From Saccharopolyspora rosea (GTDB lineage: Bacteria > Actinomycetota > Actinomycetes > Mycobacteriales > Pseudonocardiaceae): DNA of 64,000 bases. Made by a program: the position numbers and the translations under genes. The stretch covers positions 2,170,001 to 2,234,000 of the forward strand of contig NZ_CP102826.1 of NCBI RefSeq assembly GCF_025643595.1, written 5' to 3'. Shown here piece by piece: positions 38,825-63,105 of this stretch (its first letter is position 1; every line of letters begins with the position of its first letter). Below the pieces are notes generated by a model. The model searched no databases, was not told the origin of the DNA, and was given only the letters and a program-made list of their open reading frames with translations.

Positions 38825-38857
38825 TGCGGTCTCCTCGTGTCCGTGGTGGGTGCTCAG

Positions 38858-45187: not shown

Positions 45188-45210
45188 AGTTCGAGCACGC
45201 TGCAAGTCAA
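45188..45210 (-). promoter_or_regulatory. MerR-type promoter element before the exporter gene
   Basis: On the minus strand, TTGACT overlaps a dyad that reads ACTTGCAG-cgtg-CTCGAACT. It resembles the element upstream of the MDR gene (39954-39976) in the TTGACTT start, the AGCG centre and position. The same MerR-like activator, not present in the window, could control both. Confidence 0.35.
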
Positions 45211-46096: not shown

Positions 46097-46714
46097 GTGA
46101 GAAGCACACGAGTGGCCCAGTCCGCCGTCATCGCCGCGGTCGTGGCGGCCACCGGAGTACCGCTGGCCGCGTCGCCCGCGTACGCCGCGCCGATGACCGT
46201 GCCGTACCTGTGCTCGCGGGACGTCAACGGTTCCCCGGTGATCCTGCACTACCAGCGGGGGTACGACGTGACCGCTCCGGCGTCGGTCGAGCCGGGGGAG
46301 AAGTTCACCGTGACCTTCGACAACGAGCCGATCAACCCGCTGACCAACTTCAACACCGAGGTGTGGGACGTGGCGGTGTCGTTCGAGCTCCCGGCGAACG
46401 CGCGCTACGTCGGCCACACCCTGACCGGCGGGTCGAACCTGGGGAATTCCCGGCAGAGCGTCGAGGTCCGGGGCAACCGGATCACGTTGCACGCCACGGG
46501 TCCGTTCAAGGCGGGTGAGGACCACGACCTGCCGAACCTCAACGTCGAGCTGGTGGCCCCGGAGCGCGGAGAACTGGTGACCGCTCCGGCCGGGACCAGC
46601 GCCGAGGACCCCGGGTTCCGCTGGACCGCGCAGAACCCGGACACCCACGAGGTGTTCGACCTGCCGTGCTACCCGGAGAAGCCGGCCGAGCTGTCCAAGA
46701 CGGTCGTGGGCTGA
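46097..46714 (+). CDS. Secreted protein of unknown function
   Basis: A 205-residue exported protein. GTG start at 46097 with AGGAGG 8 nt upstream. The signal peptide ends near AYAAP (about residue 31). The mature part is a beta-rich domain with Cys residues near both ends (YLCSRDVNG, FDLPCYPEK), similar in pattern to small secreted immunoglobulin-like actinomycete proteins. No enzymatic motif is seen. It sits inside the cluster, convergent with a luciferase-like gene and divergent from the DsbA-like gene. It could bind the product outside the cell, but that is speculation. Confidence 0.75.
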   Translation: MRSTRVAQSAVIAAVVAATGVPLAASPAYAAPMTVPYLCSRDVNGSPVILHYQRGYDVTAPASVEPGEKFTVTFDNEPINPLTNFNTEVWDVAVSFELPANARYVGHTLTGGSNLGNSRQSVEVRGNRITLHATGPFKAGEDHDLPNLNVELVAPERGELVTAPAGTSAEDPGFRWTAQNPDTHEVFDLPCYPEKPAELSKTVVG

Positions 46715-47808: not shown

Positions 47809-48182
47809 GGAACCAGCCCTGCCTTCTGCGCGGCGAGCGCGGTCGCGACGGTCGGTGGTGCGGTGGTGGGCCCGCGCCGCCATGGTCTGAGCGGCCGGTA
47901 CAGGATCGGCAGAGGCGGGATCGAACCGGGCCGCGCGGTCGCCCGGCTCCGGTGTGAGGAAGCGTCCGCGCCTGTTGGTCCGAACGGGCCATGCCCGGGG
48001 CGGAGGTCGTCGGTAGGTTCGTCCGTGACTGGGGTGGCTTTCGAGGGCGTGCGCCGCCGGCTCCGCGGGAGTCGGCGGCCTCGTCGACGTCGAACGGTGC
48101 GGAGCCGGGGACGTGGGCGGGCGCGCCACTGGGGCTCGTGGGCGACCGCAGTGCACGTACCACTTCGTTCCTGGGGGAACAG
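47809..48182. other. Divergent promoter region of LLM and SARP genes
   Basis: 374 bp without a gene. It holds scattered TCGA and GTCGTCGG motifs but no pair at 11-bp pitch. The SARP start at 48183 is preceded by GGGGGAAC. An open frame from 47991 in phase with the SARP gene lacks a ribosome site. Confidence 0.4.
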
Positions 48183-48968
48183 ATGGAAAATCGTCCGCGC
48201 GGCGCAGCATCGGCCCGGTTCAGCGTGCTCGGCCCGCTCGGGATGCAGTGCGACGGCGAGGACCGCACGCCGAGCGCACCGAAGGTGCGGCAGATCCTGG
48301 CGCTGCTGGTGCTGCGCGCCAACCAGGTCGTGAGCACCGACGCGCTGCTGCAAGAGCTGTGGGGCGACGAGCCGCCGTCGACGGCGCTGGCGACCCTGCA
48401 CACCTACATCTACCACCTGCGCAGACTCCTCCGGCGCAACGGGTTGTCGGCCGACGGGGCCGACGTGGTGATCACCCGCGCGCCCGGCTACCTGCTCAAG
48501 GTCGAGCCCCACCAGGTCGACCTGACGCGCTTCCGCGAGCTGTGCCTGTCGGGCCGCGAGCACCTGGACGCGGGTAGGCACACCGAGGCGGTGGCCGACC
48601 TGGAGTCGGCGCTGGGCCTGTGGACCGCGCAACCGCTGGTCAACATCAACCTGGGGCCCCGGTTGTCGGCGCACGTGGCCGAGTTGGAGGAGAACTGGCT
48701 GTGCGCGGTGAAGCTGCACGTGGAAGCGCGGATGCGCCGCGGCCTGCACCACGAGGTGATCGGCGAGCTGCGCTCGCTGACCGCGCAGTACCCGCTGGAC
48801 GAGTGGCTGCACGCGCAGCTCATCCGGGCGCTGGACCTGAGCGGCCGGCGCGGTGACGCGCTGCGGGCCTACCAGGGCTTGCGCGCCGCCCTGACCCGGG
48901 ACCTGGGGCTCGACCCGTCACCGGAAGTGCAGCGGCTGCACCAGCAGGTGCTGGCGGCGGGGGCCTGA
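48183..48968 (+). CDS. AfsR/SARP-family pathway regulator (ActII-ORF4-like)
   Basis: A 261-residue SARP, close in size to ActII-ORF4 (about 255). The winged helix reads FSVLGPLGMQCDGEDRTPSA, VRQILALLVLRANQVVSTDA and TLHTYIYHLRRLLRRNG; BTAD reads EAVADLESALGLWTAQPL and GDALRAYQGLRAALTRDLGL. ATG 48183 follows GGGGGAAC. It is the best candidate for the activator that reads the TCGA-type boxes at 33285, 61098 and 61189. A possible hairpin follows the stop. Confidence 0.92.
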   Translation: MENRPRGAASARFSVLGPLGMQCDGEDRTPSAPKVRQILALLVLRANQVVSTDALLQELWGDEPPSTALATLHTYIYHLRRLLRRNGLSADGADVVITRAPGYLLKVEPHQVDLTRFRELCLSGREHLDAGRHTEAVADLESALGLWTAQPLVNINLGPRLSAHVAELEENWLCAVKLHVEARMRRGLHHEVIGELRSLTAQYPLDEWLHAQLIRALDLSGRRGDALRAYQGLRAALTRDLGLDPSPEVQRLHQQVLAAGA

Positions 48969-49057: not shown

Positions 49058-50044
49058 TCAGGCGGGTTCGTCCGGCCCCGCCGCCCGCCGGGCGGCGGCG
49101 ATCAGACGGGCCTGGGCGAGGGTGTGCTGCGGGTCGTGCTCGTCCGCGCCGCGCACGGCCCGCAGGAACGCCGCGATGCTGTTGGTGCACTGGTCGTCGG
49201 CCGCCAGCGTGATCCGCTCCTCGTGGTCCTGGCGGTGGACGCGCACGACGGGGCGGTGCGAGGCCGGTGGGGTGAAGGCGTGGTCGACGGTGATCCTGCC
49301 TTCCGCGCCCCACAACTCGTACCGCGACGCGTACCCGTGCTCCATGCCGAAGGTGAGCTGGGCGACGACCCCGTCGCCGCGGCGGAGCAGGACCGCACCG
49401 CCGACGTCGACACCGGTCGCGGTGTCGTGCCGCAGCGCGGCACCGGCGACGTGCAGGTCGGTGCCGAGGAAGTGCAGCGCCGCCCTGGTCGGATAACCGC
49501 CCACGTCGAACAGCGCACCGCCGCCGAGTTCCGGCCGGTAGCGGATGTCGTCGGCGGGTCGGGGTGGGATGGCGAAAGCGGCGGAGAACGCCCGGAGCCG
49601 CCCGATGGCGCCTCGATCGAGCAGGCCCCGGACGTGCTCGTGCTGGCCGTGGTGGACGAACATGAAGTTCTCCACCAGCGCCAGGCCGCGGGAGCGGGCC
49701 AGGTCGACCAGTGCGGCGGTGTCCGAAGGGGACGTCGTCAGCGGCTTCTCGGCGAGCACGTGCTTGCCGGCCCGCAGCGCCCGGTCGATCCACTCCGCGT
49801 GCAGTCCGGTGGGCAGCGGGACGTAGACGGCGTCGACGTCGTCCCGGTCGAGGACGCGTTGGTAGCCCTGCACCGGGGCGGCGCCGAACCGGTCGGCGAG
49901 CTGTTCGGCCTTGCCCCGGGAGCGGCTGCCCACCGCGGCCACCCGGATGCCGGGTGTGGCGGCCACCGCGGGCAGCACCCGCCGCGCCGCGATGTCGGCG
50001 CAGCCCAGGACGCCGAGCCTGATCGGTGTGCTGTCGGGTCGCAT
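49058..50044 (-). CDS. NDP-hexose 3-ketoreductase (Gfo/Idh/MocA family)
   Basis: A 328-residue oxidoreductase with the N-terminal Rossmann motif LGVLGCADIAARRVLPA, the EKP motif (HVLAEKPLTTS) and a C-terminal GFO/IDH/MocA domain with GGGALFDVGGYP. In deoxysugar pathways this type (SpnN, OleW, TylC1-like) reduces the unstable 3,4-diketo-2,6-dideoxy intermediate made by the 2,3-dehydratase, here two genes upstream. GGAGGAG lies before the ATG. Last gene of a three-gene sugar/flavin operon. Confidence 0.9.
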   Translation of the reverse strand: MRPDSTPIRLGVLGCADIAARRVLPAVAATPGIRVAAVGSRSRGKAEQLADRFGAAPVQGYQRVLDRDDVDAVYVPLPTGLHAEWIDRALRAGKHVLAEKPLTTSPSDTAALVDLARSRGLALVENFMFVHHGQHEHVRGLLDRGAIGRLRAFSAAFAIPPRPADDIRYRPELGGGALFDVGGYPTRAALHFLGTDLHVAGAALRHDTATGVDVGGAVLLRRGDGVVAQLTFGMEHGYASRYELWGAEGRITVDHAFTPPASHRPVVRVHRQDHEERITLAADDQCTNSIAAFLRAVRGADEHDPQHTLAQARLIAAARRAAGPDEPA

Positions 50045-50081: not shown

Positions 50082-50603
50082 TCAGGAGGTTTTCAGGGTG
50101 GTGAACGTGCGGTCGCCGTAGACGAGCCGGTCGCCCTCGGCGCCGTCGACCGCGCGCACGGCCCCGACGAGTATCAGGTGGTCGCCCGCCGGGTGGCGGC
50201 CGTGGACCCGGCACTCCACCGCGACCCGGGCTCCCTCGACGACGGGAAGTCCGCCCGGGGTGCGGGCGAACCGCCCGTGCGCGAACTTGTCCGCGCTCTT
50301 GCTGGCGAAGGTGCGGGCGAGCGGGACGTGTTCGGGCCCGAGAACGCTGACCGCGAACCGCTCGCACGTCGCGAACGCCGGGTAGCAGTTGCTGGTGAGC
50401 CCGACGCACACCGCGATCAGCGGGGGTTCCAGCGAGACCGAAACCAGGGAACTGGCGGTGAATCCGCGCGGCGCGCCGTCCGCGTCGAGGGTGGTCGTGA
50501 TGGTGACCGCGGCGGGCACCCGGGCCATCGCGGCGCGGAACCGCGCGGCGTCGACGGTGCCCGGAGCCGTGGTGGGTCCGGTGGGAGCGGCGGGTTCGGT
50601 CAA
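50082..50603 (-). CDS. Flavin reductase (ActVB-like)
   Basis: A 173-residue flavin reductase of the HpaC/ActVB family (FRAAMARVPAAVTITTTLDA, GFTASSLVSVSLEPPLIAVC, FAVSVLGPEHVPLARTFASK). It reduces FMN or FAD with NAD(P)H and supplies it to a partner monooxygenase. The partner is most likely the acyl-CoA-dehydrogenase-fold hydroxylase at 35436, about 15 kb away. TTG start at 50603, with GAGGAGG upstream. It sits between the 2,3-dehydratase (27 bp) and 3-ketoreductase (37 bp), an unusual place for it. Confidence 0.92.
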   Translation of the reverse strand: MTEPAAPTGPTTAPGTVDAARFRAAMARVPAAVTITTTLDADGAPRGFTASSLVSVSLEPPLIAVCVGLTSNCYPAFATCERFAVSVLGPEHVPLARTFASKSADKFAHGRFARTPGGLPVVEGARVAVECRVHGRHPAGDHLILVGAVRAVDGAEGDRLVYGDRTFTTLKTS

Positions 50604-50630: not shown

Positions 50631-51995
50631 TCACCGGGCGCTGACGGGGACGTCCTCGGCGCGGGCGGGGCGCCGCGGCGACGTCTCGGCGGTCGCGGCG
50701 TTGATGCAGGCGAGCAGGCAGCGCGCGGCGACGTTGACGTGGTTGCCGTAGCGCACGAAGTGCCCGAGCTGGTCGGGCGTCATCCACGCGAAGTCGTCGG
50801 GGACGTCGGTGGGGAAGTCCTCGCCGACGTCGACGAGGGCGTAGCGGTTCTCCGCCTGGAAGAACCGGCCGCCCTCCTCGGAGTGGACGCGGTCGAGCAG
50901 CACCGCGTCGGCGGGTGCGGCGAGGACGTCGTCGAGGTACCGGGGGCGCTGTTCGGCGGGCACGTCCCGGTAGTTCGACGGGATGCAGCTCACGGTCGGC
51001 GACATCTCGACGACGTCCGCGGTGCCCGCCTCGGTCCGGGCGTGCACGAGGAGGTGCCGGACGCCGTGGATCCGCTTGCTCAGGAACGCGATCAGCCCGC
51101 GGTCGCGCGGGGCGACCATCGGTTGCGACCAGCTGGCGACCTCGCGGTTGCTGGCCCGCACGTCGACGCCCACCACGGAGAAGAACTTGCCCTGCTCGTG
51201 GTGGACGCCGTCCGGGGACAGCAGCCAGCCCGTCGTGCGGTTCAGCGGGATCGGCCTGCGGTCCAGGCGGTAGCGGGACTTGGCTTCGGCGAACCAGCTC
51301 AGCAGCTCGTCGAGCCGGTGCAGCGCACCGGGGTCGGGGTCGGCGGCCACCGGTGGGCGGAGCAGGTTGGGCAGCCCCGACATCACGGTGCGCGCGTCCA
51401 TGTTGACCAGGTTGTCGATCTGCAGCAGCTCGCCGAGTTGTGCGACGCTCAGCCAGCAGAAGTCCTCGTGGACACCGACGTCCTCGGTCACCTCGACGAT
51501 CATGTTGCGGTTGCGCTTGGCGAGGAACCAGGCGCCCTGTTCGGATTGCAGCGCGTCGAAGACGACCCGGCCGCGTCGCGGGGCGACGAAGTGCTCCAGG
51601 TAGGGCACGGACGCGCCGCGGTGCACGCGGGTGTAGTTGCTGCGGGTCGCCTGCACGGTCGGTGCCAGTTGCAGCAGGTTGATGTTGCCCGGCTCCATCT
51701 TGGCCTGCATCAGGCAGTGCGGCACACCGCCGAACTCCTTCACCAGGATCCCGAGGATCCCGGTCTCCGGTTGCCGGATGATGGGCTGGCACCAGGACCC
51801 GATCTCGCGGTGGTCCGTGGTGACTTCCAGCCCTTCGACGGAGAAGAACCGCCCGCTGTGGTGCGCCAGGTTCCCGGTCTCGGGGTCGAGGCGCCAGCCG
51901 TCCAGCCGGTCCAGCGGCACCGGCGACACCCGGTAGGTGTTGGCCAGTCGGCGTTCGGCGAACCAGTCGTGGAACGCCGATGTTGTCCGGAACAC
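50631..51995 (-). CDS. NDP-hexose 2,3-dehydratase
   Basis: A 454-residue protein made of two homologous halves (HSGRFFSVEGLEVTTDHREI with PGNINLLQLAPTVQATRSNY in the first; QGKFFSVVGVDVRASNREVA with EMSPTVSCIPSNY in the second), the hallmark of TylX3/OleV/SpnO-type 2,3-dehydratases. It removes the 2-hydroxyl of TDP-4-keto-6-deoxyglucose and so commits it to 2,6-dideoxysugars. GTG start at 51995, with GGAGG 4 nt upstream. Divergent from the 4,6-dehydratase gene, which makes its substrate. Confidence 0.95.
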   Translation of the reverse strand: MFRTTSAFHDWFAERRLANTYRVSPVPLDRLDGWRLDPETGNLAHHSGRFFSVEGLEVTTDHREIGSWCQPIIRQPETGILGILVKEFGGVPHCLMQAKMEPGNINLLQLAPTVQATRSNYTRVHRGASVPYLEHFVAPRRGRVVFDALQSEQGAWFLAKRNRNMIVEVTEDVGVHEDFCWLSVAQLGELLQIDNLVNMDARTVMSGLPNLLRPPVAADPDPGALHRLDELLSWFAEAKSRYRLDRRPIPLNRTTGWLLSPDGVHHEQGKFFSVVGVDVRASNREVASWSQPMVAPRDRGLIAFLSKRIHGVRHLLVHARTEAGTADVVEMSPTVSCIPSNYRDVPAEQRPRYLDDVLAAPADAVLLDRVHSEEGGRFFQAENRYALVDVGEDFPTDVPDDFAWMTPDQLGHFVRYGNHVNVAARCLLACINAATAETSPRRPARAEDVPVSAR

Positions 51996-52221
51996 GGTAC
52001 CTCCCAAGCCTGTGCGCGCCGCTGCGGCCGGTCGAGGCCGCTCGATCGCTTCGCGTCCGCAGGATCGACCACGGCGATCGAGCAGCGGCCTGTCCTCCGC
52101 TAGAGGATCGGTGGACGCGCGGGGCCTGGGCCGCGGCGACCCGGATTCGACCCGCGCTCCAGCGGGTCCGGGCACGCTCGCGGCGCCCGGCGGTGCGGAT
52201 CCGCCGGCGTGGAGGTGGCTG

Positions 52222-53172
52222 ATGAGGGTGTTCGTGACGGGTGGAGCCGGTTTCATCGGCTCGAACTACGTCCGCAGGGTGCTGTCCGGCGCGTACCCGG
52301 GCTACGAGGACGCGGAGGTGACCGTCTTCGACAAGTTCACCTACGCGGGCGATTCGCGGAACCTGCCCTCGGACCACCCGCGGTTGCGGGTGGTGCGCGG
52401 GGACATCTGCGACGGGCCGGCGCTGGTGGACGCGCTGCGCGGGCACGACCGCGTGCTGCACTTCGCCGCGGAGTCCCATGTGGACAGATCGTTGTCGGGT
52501 GCGGCCGAGTTCATGCGCACCAACGTGCTCGGCACCCAGACGGTGCTCGACGCGTGCCTGGACGCCGGAGTGGGCACCGTGGTGCACGTGTCCACCGACG
52601 AGGTCTACGGCTCGATCGACGAGGGTTCGTGGTCCGAGAGCGAGCCGCTGCTGCCGAATTCGCCCTACGCCGCGTCCAAGGCGGGCAGCGACCTCGTCGC
52701 CCGCTCGTACTGGCGCTCGCACGGGCTGGACGTGCGGATCACCCGGTGCAGCAACAACTACGGCCCGTACCAGCACGTCGAGAAGCTCATCCCGTTGTTC
52801 ATCACGAGGCTGCTCAGCGGCGGGCAGGTTCCGCTGTACGGCGACGGCGGCAACACCCGGGAGTGGTTACACGTGGACGACCACTGCCGGGCCCTGCAAC
52901 TGGTGCTGACCAAGGGCAGCGCGGGCGAGATCTACAACATCGGTGGCGGGGTGGAGCGGACCAACCTGGAGATCACCGCCCTGCTGCTGGAGTTGTGCGG
53001 AGCCGGTTGGGAGTCGGTGCGCAGGGTGGCCGACCGCAAGGCGCACGACCGGCGCTACTCGGTGGACGACAGCAAGATCCGGGACGAACTCGGCTACGCG
53101 CCGCGGTGCCGGTTCGAGGACGAGTTGGCGGCGCTGGTCGAGTGGTACCGCGCCCACCCGGAGCGCTGGTGA
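52222..53172 (+). CDS. rmlB: dTDP-glucose 4,6-dehydratase
   Basis: A 316-residue extended SDR. The NAD+ site is FVTGGAGFIGSNYVRR, the catalytic triad region HVSTDEVYG gives T125-D126-E127, and YAASK gives Y149/K153. It converts TDP-glucose to TDP-4-keto-6-deoxyglucose, the entry to all deoxysugars of the cluster. ATG with GGAGGT upstream. Divergent from the 2,3-dehydratase; the shared 226-bp region contains several TCGA motifs, but not at exact 11-bp pitch. A perfect hairpin terminator follows. Confidence 0.95.
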   Translation: MRVFVTGGAGFIGSNYVRRVLSGAYPGYEDAEVTVFDKFTYAGDSRNLPSDHPRLRVVRGDICDGPALVDALRGHDRVLHFAAESHVDRSLSGAAEFMRTNVLGTQTVLDACLDAGVGTVVHVSTDEVYGSIDEGSWSESEPLLPNSPYAASKAGSDLVARSYWRSHGLDVRITRCSNNYGPYQHVEKLIPLFITRLLSGGQVPLYGDGGNTREWLHVDDHCRALQLVLTKGSAGEIYNIGGGVERTNLEITALLLELCGAGWESVRRVADRKAHDRRYSVDDSKIRDELGYAPRCRFEDELAALVEWYRAHPERW

Positions 53173-53236: not shown

Positions 53237-54624
<1,388 letters not shown>

Positions 54625-54628
<4 letters not shown>

Positions 54629-56301
54629 CGGGCACCGAGTGCCCGGAAGCGCCGGTGCCTGTCAGCCGGAAACGCCTCCGGCGGTCGTTCGACGAGCTCG
54701 CCGAGGTGGTGGCGGATGGCCGCCCCGAGCCGGTCGGCGGCCAGGGCGGGATCCGCTCCGGTCCCGCCCGGCGGCTCGGGGATCACCGCTTCGACGATCC
54801 CGTGCCGCAGCAGGTCGCGGGCGGTCAGACCCAGCGCGGCAGCAGCCTCGGCCGCGGCTTCGGGGGCGTTCCACAGGATCGCGGCGCACCCCTCGGGGCT
54901 GATGACCGAGTAGGTCGCGCCGGAGAACATCAGCACCCGGTCGGCCACGGCCAGCGCGAGCGCGCCGCCGCTGCCGCCCTCGCCGATCACCGCCGTCACC
55001 ACCGGCACCCGCAGCGCGGCCATCAGCCGGAGGTTCTCGGCGATGGCGAACGCCTGCCCCTGCTCCTCGGCGGCCGCGCCCGGGTAGGCGCCGGGGGTGT
55101 CCACCAGGGCCACGACCGGCAGTCCGAGCTTGTCGGCCAGCCGCATCAGGCGCGCGGCCTTGCGGTACCCGGCCGGTGCGGGCATGCCGAAGTTGCGGTC
55201 GCGCAGCTCGGCCGGGTCGTGCCCCTTCTGCTGGCCGATCGCGATGACCGGTCGCCCGTCGAGCCAGGCCGTTCCCGCCACCACCGACGGGCAGTCGCCG
55301 GACAGGCGATCTCCGCGCAGTTCCTGGAAGTCCTCGAAGATCTGCGCGAAGTAGTCCAGCGCGGTGGGCCGGTCCAGGTCGCGGGCGCCGCGGACCTGGT
55401 CCCACGGGGCGGGTTCGGGCAGCAGGTCGGGGTCGCCGACGCCGGGGTCGCCGCTGCGCAACGGCGGGCGCCGGGACTCGTCGGCCGCGGCCGCGCCGAC
55501 CGCGAGCAGCTTGCCCAGTGCGCGGCGCAGCCCGGACCGCGGCACCACCAGGTCGACGAAACCGCGCTCGGCCAGGAACTCGGCGGTCTGGAAGCCCGGC
55601 GGGAGCTGCTGCCGGATGGTCTGCTCGATGACCCGTCGGCCGGCGAAGCCCATGCGCGCCCCCGGTTCGGCCACCACCACGTCGGTGGCCGCGGCGAACG
55701 ACGCCGCGACACCGCCGTAGGTGGGGTCGGTGATCAGGCTGGCGGTGAGGATCCCGGCCGCGTTGAGCTGTTCCAGCGCGATGCTCGTGCGGGCCATCTG
55801 CATCAGCGACAGCGCGCCCTCCTGCATCCGCGCGCCACCGGACGCGGTGACCAGCAGCAGCGGAACCCGTTCGGCGAGCGCGGTTTCGGCGGCAGCGGTG
55901 ATCCGCTCACCGACCGCGGAGCCCAGACTTCCGCCCATGAAGCCGAAATCCATCACCGCGGCGATGGCCGGGGTGCCGAGCACCCGGATGCGGGCGCACA
56001 GCACCGCCTCGTCCAGGCCGGTCCGGTCGCGAGCCTCGGCGAGGCGTTCGGGGTAGGGGCGGGTGTCGACGAACCCGAGCGGGTCGTCCGGCAGCGGTGC
56101 CGAGTCGAGCAGTTCGAGGTGCCCCGGGTCGGACAGCTGTTCCAGGCGTTGCCACGCGGTCAGCCGGTCGTGGTGACCGCACTCGGCGCAGACCCGGAGC
56201 AGTTCCGCCCACCGCTTGCCGTAGTACGGCGTCGCGCAGCTCGGGCAGAGCACCCAGGTGGCCGGTTCGGTGCGCCGCGGTGAGGTGCGGGTGCGGCTCA
56301 T
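54625..56301 (-). CDS. accDA: Acetyl-CoA carboxyltransferase, fused beta (AccD) and alpha (AccA) subunits
   Basis: A 558-residue fusion. Residues 1-290 are AccD-like, starting with a Cys4 zinc ribbon (CPSC and CAEC near residues 19-41) and containing [20 protein letters not shown]. Residues about 310-558 are AccA-like ([54 protein letters not shown]). Together with AccC (next gene) and AccB (62083) it makes malonyl-CoA for the polyketide. The separate E. coli-like subunit layout, here fused, differs from actinobacterial AccA3/AccD systems and recurs in aromatic PKS clusters such as jadomycin. Confidence 0.95.
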
Positions 56302-56374: not shown

Positions 56375-57295
56375 TCAGGCCAGGCACTCCGGCAGCGTCC
56401 CGCCGTTGTACTCGACCATCTCGCCGAAGATCCGCACCACGTCCAGCGGCCTGCCGAGTTCGCCGCCCTCCAGTTCGGCGTAGGCGCGGTGCAGGTTGCC
56501 CACCAGGCGTTCCGGGTCGAGCCACTCGGAGTAGGGGCCGAGATCGGTCCTGCCGGCCAGTTCCAGCGGCGGAATCCCGGCGGCGAAGCCCTCGGCGGCG
56601 ATCTGCTGCAACCAGCGCAGGTAGGCGTCGGTCTGGTCGATCACCTCGGGTCCGCTGACCTCGCCGTGCCCGACGACGACGGTGCGGGCGCCGAGCGCGC
56701 GCAGTCGCCGCAGGGCGCGCAGGCTGCCCGCGATCGAGCCCATGAGGTTGAACGGCGTGCACCCGTTGAGCAGCACGTCGCCGGCGAACAGGACGCGTTC
56801 GGCGGGCAGCCACACCACGACGTCGTTGGTGGTGTGGGCCGGACCGACGTGCAGCAGCTCGACCAGGCGGTCGTCGACGTGCAGGGACAACCGGTCGCGG
56901 AAGGTGACGGTGGGCAGCGTCACCCGGACGTCGCCCCACTCCACGTCCGGCCACAGCTGCGTCAGGCCCAGCCCGGTCTCGGCCATCTCGGTGCGCGCCT
57001 TCTCGTGCGCGATGATGGCCGCCGACGGGGCGAAGACGTGGTTGCCGAAGACGTGATCGCCGTGGTGGTGGGTGTTGACCACGGTGTGGTGGCCTTCCGT
57101 GCCGAGGCCGTCGACCGCCTCCCGCAGCAGGGCCACCCGGCGCTCGGTGGCCGCGGTGTCCACCACGACGACGCCGTGGCGGCCCGCGATCAGCCCGGAG
57201 TTGTTCAGGCACCAGCCGCCGTGCGGCTGGGTGTGCACGTGGACGCCGTCGGCGATCTCGGTGAGCCGCGGCCGCGCGGCCGTGCCGCTGCTCAT
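56375..57295 (-). CDS. MBL-fold polyketide cyclase (ActIV-type position)
   Basis: A 306-residue metallo-beta-lactamase-fold protein with THHHGDH (residues 75-81), a later [24 protein letters not shown] and [10 protein letters not shown] metal sites. It stands directly after the didomain aromatase, whose stop overlaps its ATG, exactly where actIV (second-ring cyclase) stands in the actinorhodin cluster. It is thus predicted to close the second ring of the octaketide. A general MBL hydrolase or thioesterase that releases the chain from the ACP is the alternative. Confidence 0.85.
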
Positions 57296-58242
57296 GCCCC
57301 GCTCCGCTGCTGGGCGAAGGCCCCGGCCCGGCGCAGCGTGGTCGCGCTGTTGGCGCTCAGCGCCGCGCGCACGTGCTCCCGGGCGTCGGCGAGCGTGCTC
57401 CCGCTGCCCAGCACGTCCCGCACCGCCGAGGGGTCGAGCGAGACGGTGTGCCGCGAGCGCAGCGTCGCCGAGTCGCCGTCCTGGCTGAACGTCCACAGAC
57501 CGCTGTGCCCGGCCAGCAGCTCGGGCAGCACGACCTGCTTGTAGGCGATCCACGACGGCTCCGCGCAGATCCGGTGGGAGCGGGTGCGGTGCGCCGACCC
57601 GTCCGCGGTGGCGGTGTCCATCTCCAGGTCCTGGACGCCGGGCTCGGGTTCGGTCAGCGAGACCCGCCGCACGTGCGGCAGGCGTTGCGGCCACCGGTCC
57701 GCGCGGTCCACGAATTCGTAGGCGGCGCTCGCGCTGCCGCGCACGGACACGGTGTCCTCGAAGGAGAACACGACGTCGGAGATCAGCGGGGCGCGCTCGG
57801 CCACCGCGCGCAGCGCGGCCAGCTCGGCATCGCTGTTGCGGTCGACGGCCCGGTTCACCCACTCCACGGTCTCCGCGTCGTCGGAGGTGGTGCTGAAGTG
57901 GTGCAGCAGGACGACTTCGGTGCGGTCGTCGGACACCGGCCGCAGCCGCCACTCGCCGCCCATCGACGCGATCGGGGCTTGGCTGACCTCCTGCTCGAAG
58001 CGCACGCTGCGCGCCTCGGGGTCGAGCTCGCGGCGCGAGGTCCAGGACTTCACCGCGCCGTTGAGCACCGCCCAGATCCGGAAGCGCTCCGCGCGCTCGC
58101 CGCGTTCGAGGTGCTGGACGTGCACGGTGGGGCCGAACACGGCCGGCCAGCGCGTCACGTCGGCCACCAGGTCGTACAGCTGCGCCGCGGAGGCGGTGAC
58201 GAGGCAGCGGTGCTCGGTCTCGTGCAGTCGTGTTGTCGTCAT
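57292..58242 (-). CDS. Didomain aromatase/cyclase (ActVII-type)
   Basis: A 316-residue protein with two START/Bet v1-like polyketide aromatase domains (about residues 5-150, with ADVTRWPAVFGPTVHVQHL, and 160-310, with FVDRADRWPQRLPHVRRV). Such didomain enzymes aromatise the first ring after C9 ketoreduction in reduced octaketides. ATG 58242 has GGGAG 9 nt upstream; an upstream ATG (58263) overlaps the ACP stop. Its stop overlaps the next gene (ATGA). Gene order KS-CLF-ACP-ARO-CYC copies the act cluster. Confidence 0.95.
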   Translation of the reverse strand: MTTTRLHETEHRCLVTASAAQLYDLVADVTRWPAVFGPTVHVQHLERGERAERFRIWAVLNGAVKSWTSRRELDPEARSVRFEQEVSQAPIASMGGEWRLRPVSDDRTEVVLLHHFSTTSDDAETVEWVNRAVDRNSDAELAALRAVAERAPLISDVVFSFEDTVSVRGSASAAYEFVDRADRWPQRLPHVRRVSLTEPEPGVQDLEMDTATADGSAHRTRSHRICAEPSWIAYKQVVLPELLAGHSGLWTFSQDGDSATLRSRHTVSLDPSAVRDVLGSGSTLADAREHVRAALSANSATTLRRAGAFAQQRSGA

Positions 58243-58262
58243 CGGTGGCTGCTCCCTGCCCA

Positions 58263-58517
58263 TCAAGCCTTCTCGACGAGCGCGTGGTTGACGATGTCCA
58301 GCATGTCCCGGGGCGTGCGCAGCTCGGTCAGCTCGTCCTCGGGGATGGTGATGCCGTACTCCTGCTTGATCCGGGCGCCGGTCTCGATCAGGGCGAGCGA
58401 GTCGTAGCCGAGGTCGTCGAAGGCCGTGTCGAGCACGTCGGATCCGGGGTGCTCCTCGGCTTCGGCGCCGGAGCACTCGGCGAGGATGCGGCGGAGTTCG
58501 TCCAGGGTCAGCTGCAT
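58263..58517 (-). CDS. Type II PKS acyl carrier protein
   Basis: An 84-residue acidic carrier protein. The phosphopantetheine site is Ser40 in DDLGYDSLALIETGARI. Helices fit the type II PKS ACP fold (VLDTAFDDLGYDS start, TPRDMLDIVN end). It carries the growing polyketide for the KS-alpha/KS-beta pair encoded 38 bp upstream. GGAGA lies 7 nt before the ATG. Confidence 0.97.
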   Translation of the reverse strand: MQLTLDELRRILAECSGAEAEEHPGSDVLDTAFDDLGYDSLALIETGARIKQEYGITIPEDELTELRTPRDMLDIVNHALVEKA

Positions 58518-58555
58518 GTCGGGATCTCCCATTCGTTCTGGTTGGTGCCGGGTGC

Positions 58556-59761
58556 TCACCCGGCGGCGCCGCGGACGACGAGTGCGGAGTTGAAGCCCCA
58601 CTTCCCGCGGGCGAGGACGAGGGCGGTGCCGATCGGTCGGTACCGCGGCGAGCCGGTCACCAGGTCGATCTCGTAGTGCTCGGCCGCGGTCGTGTGCGCG
58701 GTCGGGGGGATGACGTCGTGCCGGATGCTCAGCAGCGCGGTGGCCACGTCCAGCGGGCCGCCGCCGGAGTACAGCCGCCCGGTGAGCGTTTTGGGCGCGG
58801 TGACCGCGACCCCGCCCGGTCCGAACAGGTCGCGGATCGCCGCCGCCTCGACCGCGTCCAGGTCGGCGACCCCGGCCGCGTCCGCGAACACCACGTCCAC
58901 CTCGCCCGGGCGGATTCCGGCATCGGCCAGGGCGAGTTCCGCCGCCCGGCGCAACGCCGGTGGCCTGCCGGAGCCCGGCTTCGGGTCGAACGTGGCGGCG
59001 TAGCCGGCGATTTCGCCGTAGGGCTTCGCGCAACGGCTGGTGCCGGAGTCCTCGACCACCAGCAGCGCCCCGCCCTCGCCGGGCACGTACCCCGCGGCGT
59101 CGGCGGCGAAGGGCCGGTACGCCCGCGTCGGATCGGTGCAGCGGCTGATCCGCCCGCTGGACAGGTGCGAGACCCAGCCCCACGGGTCCAGCGACGAGTC
59201 GACGCCGCCGGTCACGACCAGCGGTGTGCCGTCCTGCACGGTCCGCCGGGCCTGCCCGATCGCGTCCAGCCCGCCCGCCTGCTCGGCGACCAGCACCCGG
59301 CCGGGGCCGCGCATCCCGTGGCGGATGGAGATCTGGCCGGTGTTCACCGCGTAGAACCAGGCGAACGACTCGTACACGCTGACGTACTCGGGCCCCTTGG
59401 CCCACAGCTTCTGGAATTCGCGGTGGGTGAACTCGAATCCCCCGGTGGCGTTGGAGGTGATGACCCCCATGTCGTACTCGGGCACGTCGGCCGGGTCGAC
59501 GGCCGCGTCGGCCAGCGCCCACGCGGCCCCGGCGAGCGCGAACCGGGTGGAGACGTCGGTCTGCGGCAGCAGCCGCGGGGGCAGGTGCTCGGCCGGGTCG
59601 AAGTCGAGGACCTGCCCGGCCAGCACCGCCGGGTAGGCCGACGGGTCGAACCGGGTGATCCGGCTGATCCCGTGCTCGGACTTCAGCGCCGCGGACCAGT
59701 AGTCGTCGACGCCCAGCCCGTTGGGCGCCACCACGCCCAGGCCGGTGATCCACACGCTCAT
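58556..59761 (-). CDS. Type II PKS KS-beta (chain length factor)
   Basis: A 401-residue KS-like subunit in which the catalytic Cys is replaced by Gln161 ([12 protein letters not shown]). Residues that set chain length in the actinorhodin CLF are all kept: F109, T112, F116 and W194. This predicts a C16 octaketide. Its ATG overlaps the KS-alpha stop (ATGA), the usual coupling that gives a 1:1 heterodimer. The C-terminal half contains the family's [20 protein letters not shown] region. Confidence 0.97.
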
Positions 59762-61026
59762 GAGTTCGTTCCTCCCAACCGGCGAAGCACCATCGCGCTC
59801 TGGAAACCGCCGAAACCGCTCCCGACGCTGAGCACGGTGTCCACGTCCTGCTCCCGGGCGGTCAGCGGCACGTAGTCGAGGTCGCACTCGGGGTCCGGCT
59901 CGTGCAGGTTCGCCGTCGGCGGGACCACCTGGTGCTCGATGGCCAGCGCGCAGGCGGCGACCTCGATGGACCCGATGGCGCCGAGCGAGTGGCCAACCAT
60001 GGACTTGATGGAGCTGACCGGGACGCGGTAGGCGTGCTCGCCCAGGCTGCGCTTGAACGCCGCCGTCTCGTGCCGGTCGTTCTGCTTGGTGCCCGACCCG
60101 TGGGCGTTGACGTAGTCGACGTCGGCGGGGTCGATGCGGGACTGGCCGATCGCCGCGCGGATCGCCTCCGCCATCTCGCGGCCGTCGGGTTTGAGGCCGG
60201 TCATGTGGTAGGCGTTGAGCCGGGTCGCGTAGCCGGTGATCTCGGCGTAGACGCGCGCGCCGCGGCGGCGTGCGTGGTCGAGTTCCTCCAGCACGAACAT
60301 CGCCGCGCCCTCGGCGAGGACGAATCCGTTGCGCGAGTTGTCGAACGGGCGCGAGGCGTGTTCCGGCTCGTCGTTGCGCGGGCTGGTCGCCTTGATGGCG
60401 TCGAAGCAGGACACCACGATCGGCGTGATCGGCGTGTCGGTGGCCCCGGCGACCATCACGTCCGCGGTGCCCTCGCTGATCAGTCGGCAGGCGTGCCCCA
60501 GCGCGTCCAGACCCGAGGTGCAGCCGTCGGAGACCATCGCCACCGGCCCCTCGGCGCCCACCGCCCACGCGACTTCGGCGGGCATGACGCCGGGGGAGAG
60601 GTGGTCGAACATGTGCGGTGAGAGGTACTCGTGGTCGACCTGCCACTCGCGGCCCGCGTCGGACAGCACGAGGTACTCGTGCTCCAGGCTGGTCGCGGCG
60701 GCCACCGCGCTGCCGAGGCTGACCCCGGTCCGCTCGGGGACGCCGCTCGCGGGGTCGAGCCCGCTGTCGCCGAACGCGTCGCGGGCGCACACCACCGCGA
60801 ACTGCGCGGCGCGGTCCATCCTGCGCACCTCCCGCGCCGAAAGCCCTTCGGCCACCGGGTCGAAGTCGCACTCGCCCGCGATCTGCGACCGGTAGGGCGA
60901 GGGATCGAAGAAGCTGATCCGGCGCGTGGCGGAGCGGCCCGCCGTCAGCATTTCCCAGAACTCGCGCACGTTCCGGCCGCCTGGGCTCCGCACGCCGATC
61001 CCGGTGATCACGACCCGCCGCGTCAC
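59758..61026 (-). CDS. Type II PKS KS-alpha (ketosynthase)
   Basis: A 422-residue ketosynthase with the Cys-His-His set at C169 ([11 protein letters not shown]), H309 ([12 protein letters not shown]) and H346 ([11 protein letters not shown]), the same positions as in actinorhodin KS. It decarboxylates malonyl-ACP and condenses the chain with KS-beta. GTG start at 61026, with GGAGG 7 nt upstream. First gene of a seven-gene operon ending with accC. The promoter region holds a SARP box at 61098-61115. Confidence 0.98.
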
Positions 61027-61097
61027 TCGGCCACCTCCCGTCTGCTGGTGGACACACGGCTGTGTCCCGCGGATGTGCCAACGGTGCGGCCGCGGGC

Positions 61098-61115
61098 TCG
61101 AACTCCGCTCGAAGG
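61098..61115 (-). promoter_or_regulatory. SARP box facing the KS-alpha operon
   Basis: Read on the minus strand, TCGAGCG-gagt-TCGAGCC is a direct heptamer repeat at 11-bp pitch. Eight bases further lies CACCGT as a weak -10 box, 58 bp before the GTG start. The arrangement matches known SARP-activated promoters of actinorhodin-type clusters. Confidence 0.7.
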
Positions 61116-61188
61116 TCGCTCGCTTCCGGGGAAAGCCCGCATCCCGACCACAGTGGACACATCGGCGCGGCTGGGGCTCCACGCGCAC

Positions 61189-61206
61189 TCGACCGGCTCT
61201 CGACGT
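61189..61206 (+). promoter_or_regulatory. SARP box facing the ketoreductase operon
   Basis: TCGACCG-gctc-TCGACGT is a direct heptamer repeat at 11-bp pitch, followed 8-9 bp later by CAGCCT as a weak -10 box and 50 bp later by the ketoreductase ATG. With the box at 61098 it makes the whole 230-bp KS/KR gap a bidirectional SARP target. Confidence 0.7.
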
Positions 61207-61256
61207 GGCATCGCCAGCCTGGGGTCCTCGGCACGACACGTGGAACTGGAGGAGAC

Positions 61257-62039
61257 ATGGCAGACGTCGGACCGGTCGCACTCGTCACCGGTGCCACCAG
61301 CGGGATCGGGTTGGCCATCACCCGCAGGCTCGGGCGGCTCGGCGCGCGGGTGTACCTGTGCGCGCGGAGCGCGGACGCGGTGGCCAAGACGGTGGAGGAA
61401 CTGCGCGCCGAAGGGCTCGACGTCGACGGGAGCAGCTGCGACGTGAGCGTGCCGCAGCAGATCCCGCAGCTCGTCGAGGCCGCGGTGGAGCGGTTCGGCG
61501 AGATCGACGTCCTGGTCAACAACGCCGGTCGCAGCGGGGGAGGTGTCACCGTCGAGGTCGACGACGAGGTGTGGTTCGACGTCATCAACACCAACCTCAA
61601 CAGCGTGTTCCTGCTGACCAAGGCGGTGCTGACCAAGGGCGGTCTGCTGCGCAAGGACCGCGGCCGGATCATCAACATCGCCTCCACCGGCGGCAAGCAG
61701 GGCGTCATCTGGGGTTCGCCGTACTCGGCCTCCAAGCACGGCGTCGTCGGCTTCACCAAGTCGCTCGGCCTGGAACTGGCCAAGACCGGGATCACGGTGA
61801 ACGCGGTGTGCCCGGGTTTCGTGGAGACGCCGATGGCCGAGAAGGTCCGCGCCCACTACTCCCGGGTGTGGAGCGTGTCGGAGGAGGAGGCGTTCGAGCG
61901 CGTCACCGGACGGGTCCCGATCGGCCGGTACGTCGACCCGGAGGAGGTCGCGGCCATGGTGGAGTACCTGGTCGGTGACGGCGCCGCGGCGGTGACCGCG
62001 CAGGCGCTCAACGTGTGCGGCGGCCTCGGCAACTACTGA
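61257..62039 (+). CDS. Polyketide C9 ketoreductase (ActIII-type)
   Basis: A 260-residue SDR with TGATSGIG (residues 11-18), NNAG, Ser143, Tyr156 and Lys160 (SPYSASK). It is clearly of the ActIII type, which reduces the C9 carbonyl of the nascent octaketide. In the segment that is PGG in ActIII, this protein has SGG (GRSGGG), a common variant. ATG with GGAGGAG directly upstream. Divergent from KS-alpha as in the actinorhodin cluster, and 43 bp before accB. Confidence 0.96.
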
Positions 62040-62082: not shown

Positions 62083-62589
62083 ATGAAGCAGCAGATCCCG
62101 GCCGAGCAGGCGCCGCCGGCGCCCGAGCTCGGCGATGTCCTGGACACCGTGCGGCAGAGCGCGTTGCACCTGCTGTCCGGGTTCCCCGCGGCGCCGAGCT
62201 CGCTGCGCATCAGCGTCGGGGAGGTCTCGGTGCAGGCGGACTGGGCGGCGGGCCCACCGGTCGCCGCGGGTCCCGCGCCGGTGCGGGCCGAGGCCGCCGC
62301 GACGCGGGCTCCCGCTGCCGAGGCACCGGCCGAGGCCGAGCCGCGCGAGTACGTCCGCGCGCCGTCGGTGGGGGTGTTCTACCGCGCCCCGGAACCGGGT
62401 GCGGATCCCTTCGTCGCCGAAGGTGACCCGGTGCAGCCGGGGCAGCAGGTCGCGATCGTGGAGGCGATGAAGCTGATGATCCCGGTGAAGGCCGACGTGC
62501 GGGGCGAGCTCGTCGAGGTCCTCAAGCAGGACGGCGAGCCGGTCGAGTACGACGAACCGCTGCTGGCCGTCCGGCCGTCGGACGGCTGA
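62083..62589 (+). CDS. accB: Biotin carboxyl carrier protein of acetyl-CoA carboxylase
   Basis: A 168-residue AccB. An N-terminal helical region and a Pro/Ala-rich linker (about residues 55-88) lead to a biotinyl domain with EAMKLM, biotinylated at Lys130. It shuttles CO2 between AccC and AccD-AccA. These partners are encoded on the other strand at the end of the KS-alpha operon, and this gene follows the ketoreductase, so both halves of the enzyme are driven from the same bidirectional promoter region. AGGAGCG precedes the ATG. Confidence 0.96.
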   Translation: MKQQIPAEQAPPAPELGDVLDTVRQSALHLLSGFPAAPSSLRISVGEVSVQADWAAGPPVAAGPAPVRAEAAATRAPAAEAPAEAEPREYVRAPSVGVFYRAPEPGADPFVAEGDPVQPGQQVAIVEAMKLMIPVKADVRGELVEVLKQDGEPVEYDEPLLAVRPSDG

Positions 62590-62643: not shown

Positions 62644-63105
62644 TCAGCCGCGCGCCGGGACGGCCGGCGGCGCGAGGGACTCCTGGTCGTGGTCCACCGC
62701 CCGCGAGCGCACCAGCAGGCCGTCCCCGTCCCGGACGAGGACGTCGTGGACCACGCAGCTCGGGCCCACGACCGGTTGCTTGACGCCGGGGCGGGTGGTG
62801 AGCACGAGGGCGTAGCAGGTGGAGCGCAGCGTGCCGTCGTCGTGCTCGTCGACCACGACGTGGGTGAACAGGTGGCGGCGCTGCACCGGGTCGTCGTCGA
62901 ACCTGCGGTGGAACTCGCGCAGCGCGTCGACGATGCCCTGCCGGGTCCGCGCGGCGTCGAGCGCGGGCGAGTGCTGGAACACGCCGTCCTCGGTGAACGT
63001 CGCGGCGTAGCTCTCGAAGTCCAGCCCGTCCAGGGCCTGCATCTGCCTGCCGTAGAAGTGCAGGACTTCCGCGTAGAGCTCGGGTCGGACGGGGTTGCCT
63101 GCCAT
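62644..63105 (-). CDS. SnoaL/NTF2-like protein
   Basis: A 153-residue cone-shaped alpha+beta (NTF2/SnoaL-type) protein: [63 protein letters not shown] at 63105 with GAGGAG 5 nt upstream. In aromatic polyketide clusters such proteins act as cyclases, hydroxylase partners or epimerases (ActVI-ORFA, SnoaL, SnoaL2). The exact step cannot be told from sequence. Divergent from rmlA. Confidence 0.85.

What the first reader, a model, noticed from the sequence alone, without database searches (positions are those of the whole stretch)
56375..62039. Actinorhodin-type octaketide core inside a glycosylating cluster
Gene order KS-alpha, KS-beta, ACP, didomain aromatase, MBL cyclase with a divergent ActIII-type ketoreductase copies the actinorhodin core. 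KS-beta keeps F109, T112, F116 and W194, the actinorhodin chain-length residues, and KS-alpha keeps C169/H309/H346. The core therefore predicts a reduced octaketide (benzoisochromanequinone or dihydroxyanthraquinone type). Around it are two different glycosyltransferases, a dideoxysugar pathway and a sugar O-methyltransferase, a combination I cannot match from memory to a named product. It is the best candidate for a new natural product in this window.
Basis: partly seen in the sequence, partly recalled or inferred. Interest (0 to 1): 0.85.

Follow-up and report, generated by a model that had tools for sequence, protein, structure and literature searches.

The report
Granaticin-like glycosylated quinone antibiotic cluster
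An actinobacterium of the Saccharopolyspora group carries a gene set that most likely makes a sugar-decorated quinone antibiotic of the actinorhodin/granaticin family, with a mix of sugar-attaching and methylating enzymes not found in the related clusters compared here, so its exact product may be undescribed.

Summary
At 56375-62039 lie CYC, ARO, ACP, KS-beta and KS-alpha (minus strand) with a divergent KR. KS-beta has F109/T112/F116/W194 and KS-alpha has C169/H309/H346. In a KS-beta tree of 112 rows the window falls on the F-T-F-W side (99*), apart from F-G-L-W and spore-pigment-like rows. The cluster spans about 33.3-64.2 kb (29 genes). Tailoring points to a benzoisochromanequinone (BIQ), not an anthraquinone: homologues of ActVI-ORFA, ActVI-ORF3, ActVA-5, ActVB, ActVA-3 and, weakly, ActVI-ORF2. 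The C3 reductase is the granaticin (3R) SDR; no match to the actinorhodin (3S) enzyme was found. The best named match is granaticin: a granaticin-organised Streptomyces cluster matches at 21 genes, and its glycosyltransferase is 69-70% identical to GT1. Differences: a second glycosyltransferase whose 50-54% relatives lie in fogacin-type clusters, a MycE/TylE-type O-methyltransferase found in no compared BIQ-type cluster, a full acyl-CoA carboxylase, and no rhodinose-branch genes. Most likely product: a monomeric (3R)-BIQ C-glycoside, plausibly with granaticin's doubly C-bonded sugar, plus an O-methylated sugar decoration. It is a new member of a known kind; product and linkages are inferred.

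The parts
33335..34474 (+). GT1, glycosyltransferase of the UrdGT2/LanGT2 kind, 69-70% identical to the GT of a granaticin-organised cluster
   Evidence: EryCIII-like; 4rig 6.9e-100, 2p6p 4.6e-98
34471..35439 (+). DUF6081 protein, ActVA-3/NcnN family (cofactor-independent oxidase)
   Evidence: (PF19559 3.6e-89); family link from PMC10697411 Table 1
35436..36572 (+). ActVA-5/NcnH-like FMN-dependent monooxygenase (acyl-CoA dehydrogenase fold)
36951..37889 (+). SARP-family activator 1
   Evidence: BTAD, Trans_reg_C
37964..38869 (-). LLM2, second luciferase-like oxidoreductase (start uncertain)
   Evidence: 49-50% homologues in G034 and a Streptosporangium cluster
38976..39938 (-). medium-chain (MDR) reductase, enoyl reductase candidate (weak ActVI-ORF2 likeness)
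   Evidence: 36% to the ORF at the ActVI-ORF2 position; that act ORF matches a gene outside the cluster (66505-67464) equally well
40102..40842 (-). SDR of the Gra-ORF6/NcnP kind, C3 ketoreductase predicted to give 3R
   Evidence: 69% to the S. humi SDR; 72% to granaticin-organised cluster; function from PMC4498746 and PMC10697411
40876..42090 (-). GT2, second glycosyltransferase (VinC/SpnP-like), 50-54% relatives in fogacin-type clusters
42180..43382 (-). MycE/TylE-type sugar O-methyltransferase (start uncertain)
   Evidence: 3ssm E 9e-84; 8ia9 E 7.7e-74
43493..45205 (-). MFS exporter
   Evidence: 54% to the transporter next to GT in the granaticin-organised cluster
45256..45906 (-). DsbA-like oxidoreductase
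   Evidence: 58% in G391, 40% in G765
46106..46714 (+). ActVI-ORF3-like protein, candidate pyran-ring helper (start uncertain)
   Evidence: 39% to the act ORF at the ActVI-ORF3 position; 62% in G391
46762..47814 (-). LLM1, Gra29/NcnO-like flavin/F420-type oxidoreductase (start uncertain)
   Evidence: 64% to S. humi; 75% in G391
48201..48968 (+). SARP-family activator 2 (true start may lie upstream)
49058..50044 (-). NDP-hexose 3-ketoreductase (GFO_IDH_MocA)
   Evidence: 63-66% in G391 and G034, 54% in G765
50082..50603 (-). flavin reductase, ActVB-like
50631..52124 (-). NDP-hexose 2,3-dehydratase (start uncertain)
   Evidence: PF03559 2.4e-162
52222..53172 (+). dTDP-glucose 4,6-dehydratase
53237..54628 (-). 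biotin carboxylase subunit
54625..56301 (-). acetyl-CoA carboxyltransferase (fused)
56375..57295 (-). metallo-beta-lactamase-fold cyclase (ActIV type)
57292..58239 (-). didomain aromatase/cyclase (ActVII type; start uncertain)
58263..58517 (-). acyl carrier protein (DSL motif)
58556..59761 (-). KS-beta / chain-length factor, F109 T112 F116 W194
59758..61026 (-). KS-alpha, C169 H309 H346
61257..62039 (+). ActIII-type ketoreductase, divergent
   Evidence: 69% to act KR
62083..62589 (+). biotin carboxyl carrier protein
62644..63105 (-). ActVI-ORFA-like NTF2/SnoaL_4 protein
   Evidence: (61% to act); role per PMC11315284
63284..64000 (+). glucose-1-phosphate thymidylyltransferase (continues to 64180 outside the window)

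Best explanation
A 29-gene pathway for a monomeric, sugar-bearing benzoisochromanequinone of the granaticin branch. (1) The in-cluster acyl-CoA carboxylase feeds malonyl-CoA; KS-alpha/KS-beta/ACP build a C16 chain; KR, ARO and CYC give the common bicyclic BIQ intermediate. (2) The Gra-ORF6-type SDR reduces C3 to the R configuration; the ActVI-ORFA-like and ActVI-ORF3-like proteins help form the pyran ring; the MDR enzyme may reduce the enoyl bond. (3) The ActVA-5/ActVB-like pair, the DUF6081 oxidase and two LLM enzymes oxidise the ring to the quinone. (4) The four sugar genes stop at dTDP-2,6-dideoxy-4-ketohexose. GT1 attaches this sugar through carbon and, as proposed for granaticin, the retained 4-ketone can close a second C-C bond. 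(5) GT2 adds a second sugar, possibly L-rhamnose from the housekeeping pool, and the MycE-type enzyme O-methylates a sugar. Shown by sequence: gene families, residues, tree placement, homologue sets, no match to the act-type C3 reductase, no in-cluster 4-ketoreductase family member. Inferred: every reaction, stereochemistry, C- versus O-linkage, second sugar, methylation site. My estimates: BIQ aglycone 0.85; 3R 0.8; C-linked first sugar 0.65; doubly C-bonded sugar about 0.5; second, methylated sugar about 0.5.
For: Core and residues. KS-beta on the F-T-F-W side with 99* support (SH-aLRT, quick method), grouped with G034 and G391. BIQ tailoring homologues located against the act cluster of S. 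violaceoruber and the ncn-like cluster of S. humi, with functions from PMC4498746, PMC10697411 and PMC11315284. Granaticin-organised cluster in G765 (a protein with Sfp-PPTase motifs between the ActVI-ORFA homologue and the cyclase, as in gra-orf31/32/33): matches at 21 distinct genes, SDR 72%, LLM1 62%, GT1 69-70%. GT1 is closer to that GT than to those of its own KS-beta kin (56% G391, 54% G034). Sugar genes. OMT. Rhamnose-type genes elsewhere. All 29 cluster proteins were Pfam-scanned; besides the 4,6-dehydratase and the two classical SDRs no epimerase/RmlD-family protein appeared. G680, a second cluster with a 69% GT1, has ActVA-5 and 3KR next to each other and no DegT or DUF6365 match in its fetched 20 kb, so a granaticin-type GT also occurs without those genes.
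Against: No chemistry. F-T-F-W is common (67 of 120 rows) and does not name a product. GT1's acceptor loop differs from both UrdGT2 and LanGT2, and its scores against UrdGT2 (332.1 bits), the presumed C-glycosylating LanGT2 variant (338.1) and the presumed wild type (331.4) barely differ (which entry is which is recalled). A. missouriensis, reported to make fogacins, has the same SDR, LLM1, GT1 and GT2 types, so a non-granaticin aglycone is possible. The DUF6081 oxidase family is tied to dimer formation in act and ncn. The DUF6081 match in G765 is only 38%. The ActVI-ORF2 likeness of the MDR enzyme is weak: the act ORF matches a gene outside the cluster equally well. A 4-ketoreductase could come from elsewhere: 13 RmlD-family matches genome-wide, one of them the cluster's own 4,6-dehydratase. 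A MycE-type enzyme is expected to need a 2-hydroxyl (recalled), which a 2-deoxysugar lacks.
Confidence: 0.7

Rival explanations
1. A fogacin-type glycoside: same C16 core and 3R reductase, but the product is a fogacin-like, not fully oxidised compound carrying one or two O-linked sugars placed by GT1 and GT2.
For: The Actinoplanes missouriensis region (G445, contig length 8,773,466 = published genome size), which I take for the reported fogacin cluster with glycosylated fogacin B (PMC10697411 passages), has SDR 69%, LLM1 56%, GT1 48%, GT2 50%, 2,3-dehydratase 56%.
Against: That region has two KS pairs with F-T-L-W and F-T-I-W motifs and no 3-ketoreductase, flavin reductase, ActVI-ORF3-like, DsbA, DUF6081 or ER match; GT1 is 69-70% to the granaticin-type GT but 48% to this one.
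Confidence: 0.15
2. A medermycin-like BIQ with one singly C-linked D-olivose-type sugar; a 4-ketoreductase from elsewhere in the genome completes the sugar, and the OMT methylates it.
For: UrdGT2-like GT1; RmlD-family enzymes exist elsewhere.
Against: No 4-ketoreductase family member in the cluster; the C3 reductase is granaticin-type, while medermycin uses the ActVI-ORF1 family (passages of PMC4498746), which finds no match here.
Confidence: 0.25
3. A dimeric BIQ (actinorhodin/naphthocyclinone-like) formed with the ActVA-3/NcnN-type DUF6081 oxidase.
For: DUF6081 protein at 34471-35439; ActVA-3 and NcnN are involved in dimerisation (PMC10697411 abstract and passages).
Against: The act ORF at the ActVA-4 position finds no match and no NmrA-family protein appeared in the Pfam scans of the cluster; a DUF6081 gene is also present in the granaticin-organised cluster G765, and granaticin is monomeric.
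Confidence: 0.08
4. A dihydroxyanthraquinone (aloesaponarin/DMAC-type) pathway, or a decayed cluster that makes only such shunt products.
For: DMAC and aloesaponarin II accumulate when the C3 reductase is missing (PMC4498746 passages).
Against: The C3 reductase, pyran helpers and two-component monooxygenase are present with intact frames.
Confidence: 0.04

Closest known systems
Granaticin gene cluster (gra; Streptomyces violaceoruber Tu22, S. vietnamensis), represented here by the unnamed Streptomyces cluster G765 (and part of G680)
   Same: Matches at 21 distinct genes including KS-alpha 77%, KS-beta 65%, KR 74%, Gra-ORF6-type SDR 72%, LLM1 62%, GT1 69-70%, MFS 54%, 3KR 54%, 2,3-dehydratase 55%, 4,6-dehydratase 69%, ActVI-ORFA 59%, DUF6081 38%
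   Different: Window adds GT2, MycE-type OMT, LLM2, an MDR reductase and a three-gene acyl-CoA carboxylase; it lacks the DegT-type sugar enzyme, the DUF6365 protein and the PPTase-like gene of G765. Assignment of G765 to granaticin rests on gene order, not on a name.
Actinorhodin cluster (act)
   Same: Core order KS-alpha, KS-beta, ACP, ARO, CYC with divergent KR; ActVI-ORFA, ActVI-3, ActVA-3, ActVA-5, ActVB homologues and a weak ActVI-2 match
   Different: ORFs at the ActVI-ORF1 (3S), ActVA-4 and ActVA-6 positions find no match; none of the window's sugar proteins finds a match in the act stretch
Fogacin cluster of Actinoplanes missouriensis 431
   Same: SDR, LLM1, ActVA-5, GT1, GT2, 2,3-dehydratase
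   Different: Two KS pairs, no OMT, no acyl-CoA carboxylase match, no 3-ketoreductase match
Naphthocyclinone cluster (ncn; S. humi homologue)
   Same: SDR 69% (NcnP), LLM 64% (NcnO), core, ActVI-ORFA-like 64%, DUF6081 34%
   Different: No match to the window's GT, OMT or sugar proteins in the S. humi stretch; several S. humi ORFs have no match in the window, not assigned to ncn names here
Unnamed relatives G034 (same genus) and G391 (same family)
   Same: Closest KS-beta (76%, 74%), very similar core and sugar gene order
   Different: One GT1-type GT each (54-56%), no GT2 orthologue, no MycE-type OMT; both have DegT and DUF6365 genes; G034 has no Gra6-type SDR or LLM1, G391 no carboxylase
MycE / TylE macrolide sugar O-methyltransferases
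   Same: OMT matches along its length (3ssm E 9e-84, 8ia9 E 7.7e-74), acidic metal-site motifs kept (motif meaning recalled)
   Different: Sits in a type II PKS cluster; its three closest family relatives (55-59%) lie near a GT, two of the three also near weak KS matches (25-30%) that look like type I PKS

Membership tests
Octaketide (act-type) type II PKS | KS-beta gatekeeper residues F109/T112/F116/W194 and placement with octaketide KS-betas | tested here: met
Octaketide (act-type) type II PKS | Catalytic C/H/H triad in KS-alpha, ACP with DSL motif, KR, didomain ARO, MBL CYC | tested here: met
Decaketide or spore-pigment type II PKS | F-G-L-W or G-G-L-Y-like motif and clade | tested here: not met
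   (what those clades make is recalled/inferred)
BIQ clusters | C3 ketoreductase, pyran-forming helpers, two-component flavin monooxygenase | tested here: met
BIQ clusters | Product is a naphthoquinone-fused pyran | not testable with these tools
   needs chemistry
Granaticin cluster | Gra-ORF6-type SDR and Gra29-type LLM, no ActVI-ORF1 homologue | tested here: met
Granaticin cluster | Single UrdGT2-like GT with dTDP-2,6-dideoxy-4-ketohexose genes | tested here: inconclusive
   GT1 69-70% and sugar genes met, but a second GT is present
Granaticin cluster | Rhodinose-branch DegT enzyme, in-cluster Sfp PPTase (gra-orf32) | tested here: not met
   DegT and DUF6365: no match in the window plus 80 kb of flanks; PPTase: none among the 29 Pfam-scanned cluster proteins
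Granaticin cluster | Doubly C-bonded sugar in the product | not testable with these tools
   needs chemistry
Actinorhodin cluster | ActVI-ORF1 (3HAD-family) C3 reductase and ActVA-4 | tested here: not met
   (act gene names by recalled order)
Fogacin-type cluster | Two KS-alpha/KS-beta pairs | tested here: not met
   one KS pair in the window; two in A. missouriensis
MycE/TylE O-methyltransferases | MycE_N domain plus methyltransferase domain with E/D metal-site motifs | tested here: met
   motif meaning recalled

The most novel reading that the evidence does not exclude
The cluster makes a granaticin-type doubly C-bonded sugar with a pared-down set: one GT1 and a four-gene sugar pathway that ends at the 4-ketone, without the DegT and DUF6365 genes that accompany GT1-type genes in G765, G391, G034, G122 and S. 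termitum (and that are also missing from the fetched part of G680). Those two genes would then serve the rhodinose branch, with DUF6365 as the unannotated second glycosyltransferase of granaticin B. Here that branch is replaced by GT2 plus a macrolide-type O-methyltransferase acting on a second sugar, a glycosylation set not seen in any BIQ-type cluster compared here.
Probability: 0.35. Interest if true: 0.65.

Novelty: new member of a known kind. Interest (0 to 1): 0.45.

Why it matters
How granaticin's sugar becomes bonded twice through carbon is unknown, and the reported granaticin cluster shows only one recognised glycosyltransferase (PMC12190653, passages). A natural cluster that keeps the same type of GT and the 4-keto sugar genes but has no rhodinose branch would show which genes the double bond needs. 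It is also a concrete candidate for a new glycosylated, O-methylated BIQ from a closed genome outside Streptomyces.

Tried and rejected
Anthraquinone-only product: rejected because the C3 reductase, pyran helpers and ActVA-5/ActVB pair are present. Decaketide or spore pigment: rejected by motif and tree. Actinorhodin-type 3S chemistry: rejected, no ActVI-ORF1 match.

First I took the gene at 34471-35439 for an ActVA-4 (NmrA) homologue (label in script); Pfam showed DUF6081, i.e. ActVA-3/NcnN, so the dimer hypothesis was lowered. My first O-methyltransferase translation was out of frame; its 'no hit' there is void and was redone in frame: 0 hits at E<=1e-8 in 92 records, in 21 of 22 clusters (the G034 row there is blank through a faulty record name), in 4 of 4 (G034 among them) and in 9 of 9; the sets overlap. 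In the Pseudonocardiaceae search 61 of 390 genomes hold a MycE-like OMT at E<=1e-60 and 19 of 390, the window included, a KS-beta at E<=1e-165; both searches scored only the four best candidates per genome. Three others have both (G062, G119, G399), on other contigs or 0.86 Mb apart; G399's KS-beta lies at a contig edge, so co-location there is not excluded. In G035 a MycE-like OMT (39%) lies near a different, 55%-identical KS-beta, so such pairing is not unique among type II PKS clusters.

Searches that gave little: plasmid collection, NCBIfam names, papers on Saccharopolyspora with naphthoquinone glycosides, granaticin or type II PKS (listings; PMC4589764 passages): no matching report seen. 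I could not fetch a named granaticin genome; G765 is assigned by gene order. The structure tools were not used. Gene starts marked uncertain were not resolved. One stray query (L123:1-300) has no bearing. Two asked stretches did not exist.

Full report
What was checked. The finding names a six-gene actinorhodin-like core at 56375-62039. All six genes are there in the stated order and strands: MBL cyclase, didomain aromatase, ACP, KS-beta and KS-alpha on the minus strand, KR divergent on the plus strand. KS-beta's best solved relative is the actinorhodin chain-length factor 1tqy_B (E 3.6e-171) and KS-alpha's is 1tqy_A (E 1.2e-212). Position by position KS-beta has F109, T112, F116 and W194, and KS-alpha has C169, H309 and H346.

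Where it comes from. The window is bases 2170001-2234000 of a closed 6,562,638-base genome. The 22 held genomes of its genus include G038, whose KS-beta contig has the same length (377,242) as the Saccharopolyspora shandongensis contig. The genus is therefore Saccharopolyspora as the collection groups it; the species is not known.

Chain length. KS-beta sequences were taken from 80 named loci (the best 80 of 528 relatives) and from fetched clusters: 120 rows, 112 distinct. The four gatekeeper positions read F-T-F-W in 67 of 120 rows, F-G-L-W in 30, F-T-I-W in 7, F-T-L-W in 4, G-G-L-Y in 4 and others in 8. In the tree the 61 distinct F-T-F-W rows, with 10 rows of other motifs (mostly F-T-I-W and F-T-L-W), form one side of a branch (99*, SH-aLRT, quick method), and the window groups with G034 and G391 (99*) inside that side. 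That side holds the actinorhodin cluster of S. violaceoruber, the naphthocyclinone-like cluster of S. humi and the granaticin-organised G765. That F-G-L-W means decaketide and G-G-L-Y spore pigment is recalled or inferred, not tested. The fogacin strain A. missouriensis has F-T-L-W and F-T-I-W, so octaketide makers are not all F-T-F-W.

Extent and tailoring genes. Pfam scans of the main ORFs and comparison with relatives bound the cluster at about 33.3-64.2 kb; the M20 and PLP-enzyme genes to the left have no match in the 13 clusters, and an AraC regulator follows on the right. Besides the core there are homologues of ActVI-ORFA (61% to act), ActVI-ORF3 (39%), ActVA-5 (53%), ActVB (52%) and, weakly, ActVI-ORF2 (36%) in the act cluster of S. 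violaceoruber, and a DUF6081 protein of the ActVA-3/NcnN family. In the reverse test the ORFs at the ActVI-ORF1, ActVA-4 and ActVA-6 positions of the act cluster found no match in the window or its flanks, and the ActVI-ORF2 ORF matched a gene outside the cluster (66505-67464) as well as the one inside (act gene names assigned by recalled order).

The granaticin branch. The SDR at 40102-40842 is 69% identical to the S. humi SDR that I equate with NcnP, and LLM1 is 64% to the one that I equate with NcnO. PMC10697411 (section 15 and passages) calls NcnP homologous to Gra-6 and NcnO to Gra29, and gives S. humi proteins as 98% relatives; PMC4498746 (passages) states that Gra-ORF6 gives 3R and ActVI-ORF1 gives 3S. 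A 3R pyran is thus predicted. Among 392 Streptomyces genomes sampled, 13 had an LLM1 relative at E<=1e-100. Of nine whose surroundings I fetched, G765 and, as far as its 20 kb show, G680 have the granaticin order: GT, transporter, sugar genes, 3KR, 2,3-dehydratase, LLM, SDR, KR, core. In G765 the ActVI-ORFA homologue, a protein with Sfp-PPTase motifs (read by eye) and the cyclase follow, which corresponds to gra-orf31, gra-orf32 and gra-orf33 as named in PMC11315284 and PMC9813960 (passages). Of the 29 window proteins 23 find a match in G765, at 21 distinct genes (GT2 falls on the GT1 homologue and both SARPs on one gene); LLM2, ER, OMT and the three carboxylase subunits find none.

Sugar chemistry. 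The sugar genes are a thymidylyltransferase, 4,6-dehydratase, 2,3-dehydratase and 3-ketoreductase. No 3,5-epimerase, aminotransferase or 4-ketoreductase family member was seen among the 29 scanned proteins. The genome has one RmlC-family gene (5671925) and a strong RmlD match at 5735344, so a rhamnose pool is likely. GT1 matches UrdGT2 (2p6p) and LanGT2 entries at E about 1e-98 to 1e-100 and is 70% identical to the G765 GT and 69% to that of G680, against 58% in G122, 56% in G391, 54% in G034 and 48% in A. missouriensis. PMC12190653 (passages) says that granaticin's double C-glycosylation is unexplained, that dTDP-4-keto-2,6-dideoxyglucose is the putative precursor for the glycosyltransferase route and that only one GT homologue was identified in its cluster. 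The window's gene set ends at that donor type.

What is different. GT2 has relatives of 50-54% in 7 of the 13 clusters (S. ferralitis, A. palatopharyngis, S. shandongensis, A. missouriensis, G733, G752, G604), and adds G803, G507 and G792 at 52-54%; in G765, G680, G391, G034, S. termitum and the Streptosporangium cluster only the GT1-type genes match it, at 28-31%. The A. missouriensis genome was identified by its exact length, 8,773,466 (PMC3569393 passages), and is reported to carry the fogacin cluster; that the fetched region is that cluster is inferred. The O-methyltransferase is of the MycE/TylE kind and has no match in any BIQ-type cluster compared; its three best family relatives (55-59%) sit near a GT, two of them also near weak KS matches that look like type I PKS. 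The window lacks the DegT enzyme and DUF6365 protein that occur together in G765, G391, G034, G122 and S. termitum: of 18 sequences examined, the 5 with DUF6365 all have a 72-100% DegT match (the query itself comes from G391), G733 has DegT alone, and G680's 20 kb have neither (the window with 80 kb of flanks has neither). I read this as a rhodinose-type branch that is replaced here by GT2 plus OMT; this is inference.

Mosaic origin. The PKS core is nearest to its own family (KS-beta 76% G034, 74% G391) but GT1 is nearest to the Streptomyces granaticin-type enzyme (70%). Gene exchange between such clusters is a plausible reason, untested by a GT tree.

Verdict. It is a new member of a known kind: every enzyme family is known, the combination was not found elsewhere in the sets searched, and no MIBiG comparison was possible.

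Noticed in passing
G000:C1:3982664-3983761 (outside the window; L276): A second MycE-like O-methyltransferase (47%) next to a glycosyltransferase match; several KS domains in very long open frames lie at 3.84-3.90 Mb.
   Followed up: partly
window 22742-26907: HTH_31 regulator, radical SAM-SPASM protein and a weak APH-like protein in the lowest-GC part of the window (0.675 at 24-28 kb).
   Followed up: no
G000:C1:2252813-2285932 (L010-L012): Further large KS-bearing genes 19-52 kb to the right of the window, a separate PKS region.
   Followed up: no
L093-L101, L218-L221: A. palatopharyngis, S. shandongensis and A. missouriensis share regions with two KS-beta genes, one F-T-F-W or F-T-L-W and one F-T-I-W; a recurring, probably fogacin-type architecture (G604 has F-T-I-W plus F-G-L-W).
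   Followed up: partly
L234:812-1999 and homologues in L181, L126/L127, L273-L274, L104: DUF6365 proteins co-occur with a DegT sugar enzyme and GT1-type glycosyltransferases in all 5 clusters where DUF6365 was found (18 sequences examined); a possible unrecognised transferase.
   Followed up: partly
L275 (G035:C1:4675001-4695000), 11370-12512: A MycE-like O-methyltransferase (39%) and a GT match beside a different type II KS pair in a genus mate.
   Followed up: no
L014-L017, L021, L022, L035, L045, L047, L058, L062, L071: Twelve Nocardia loci carry an F-T-F-W KS core with all three acyl-CoA carboxylase genes and no match to the window's glycosyltransferase or sugar genes within 10 kb.
   Followed up: no
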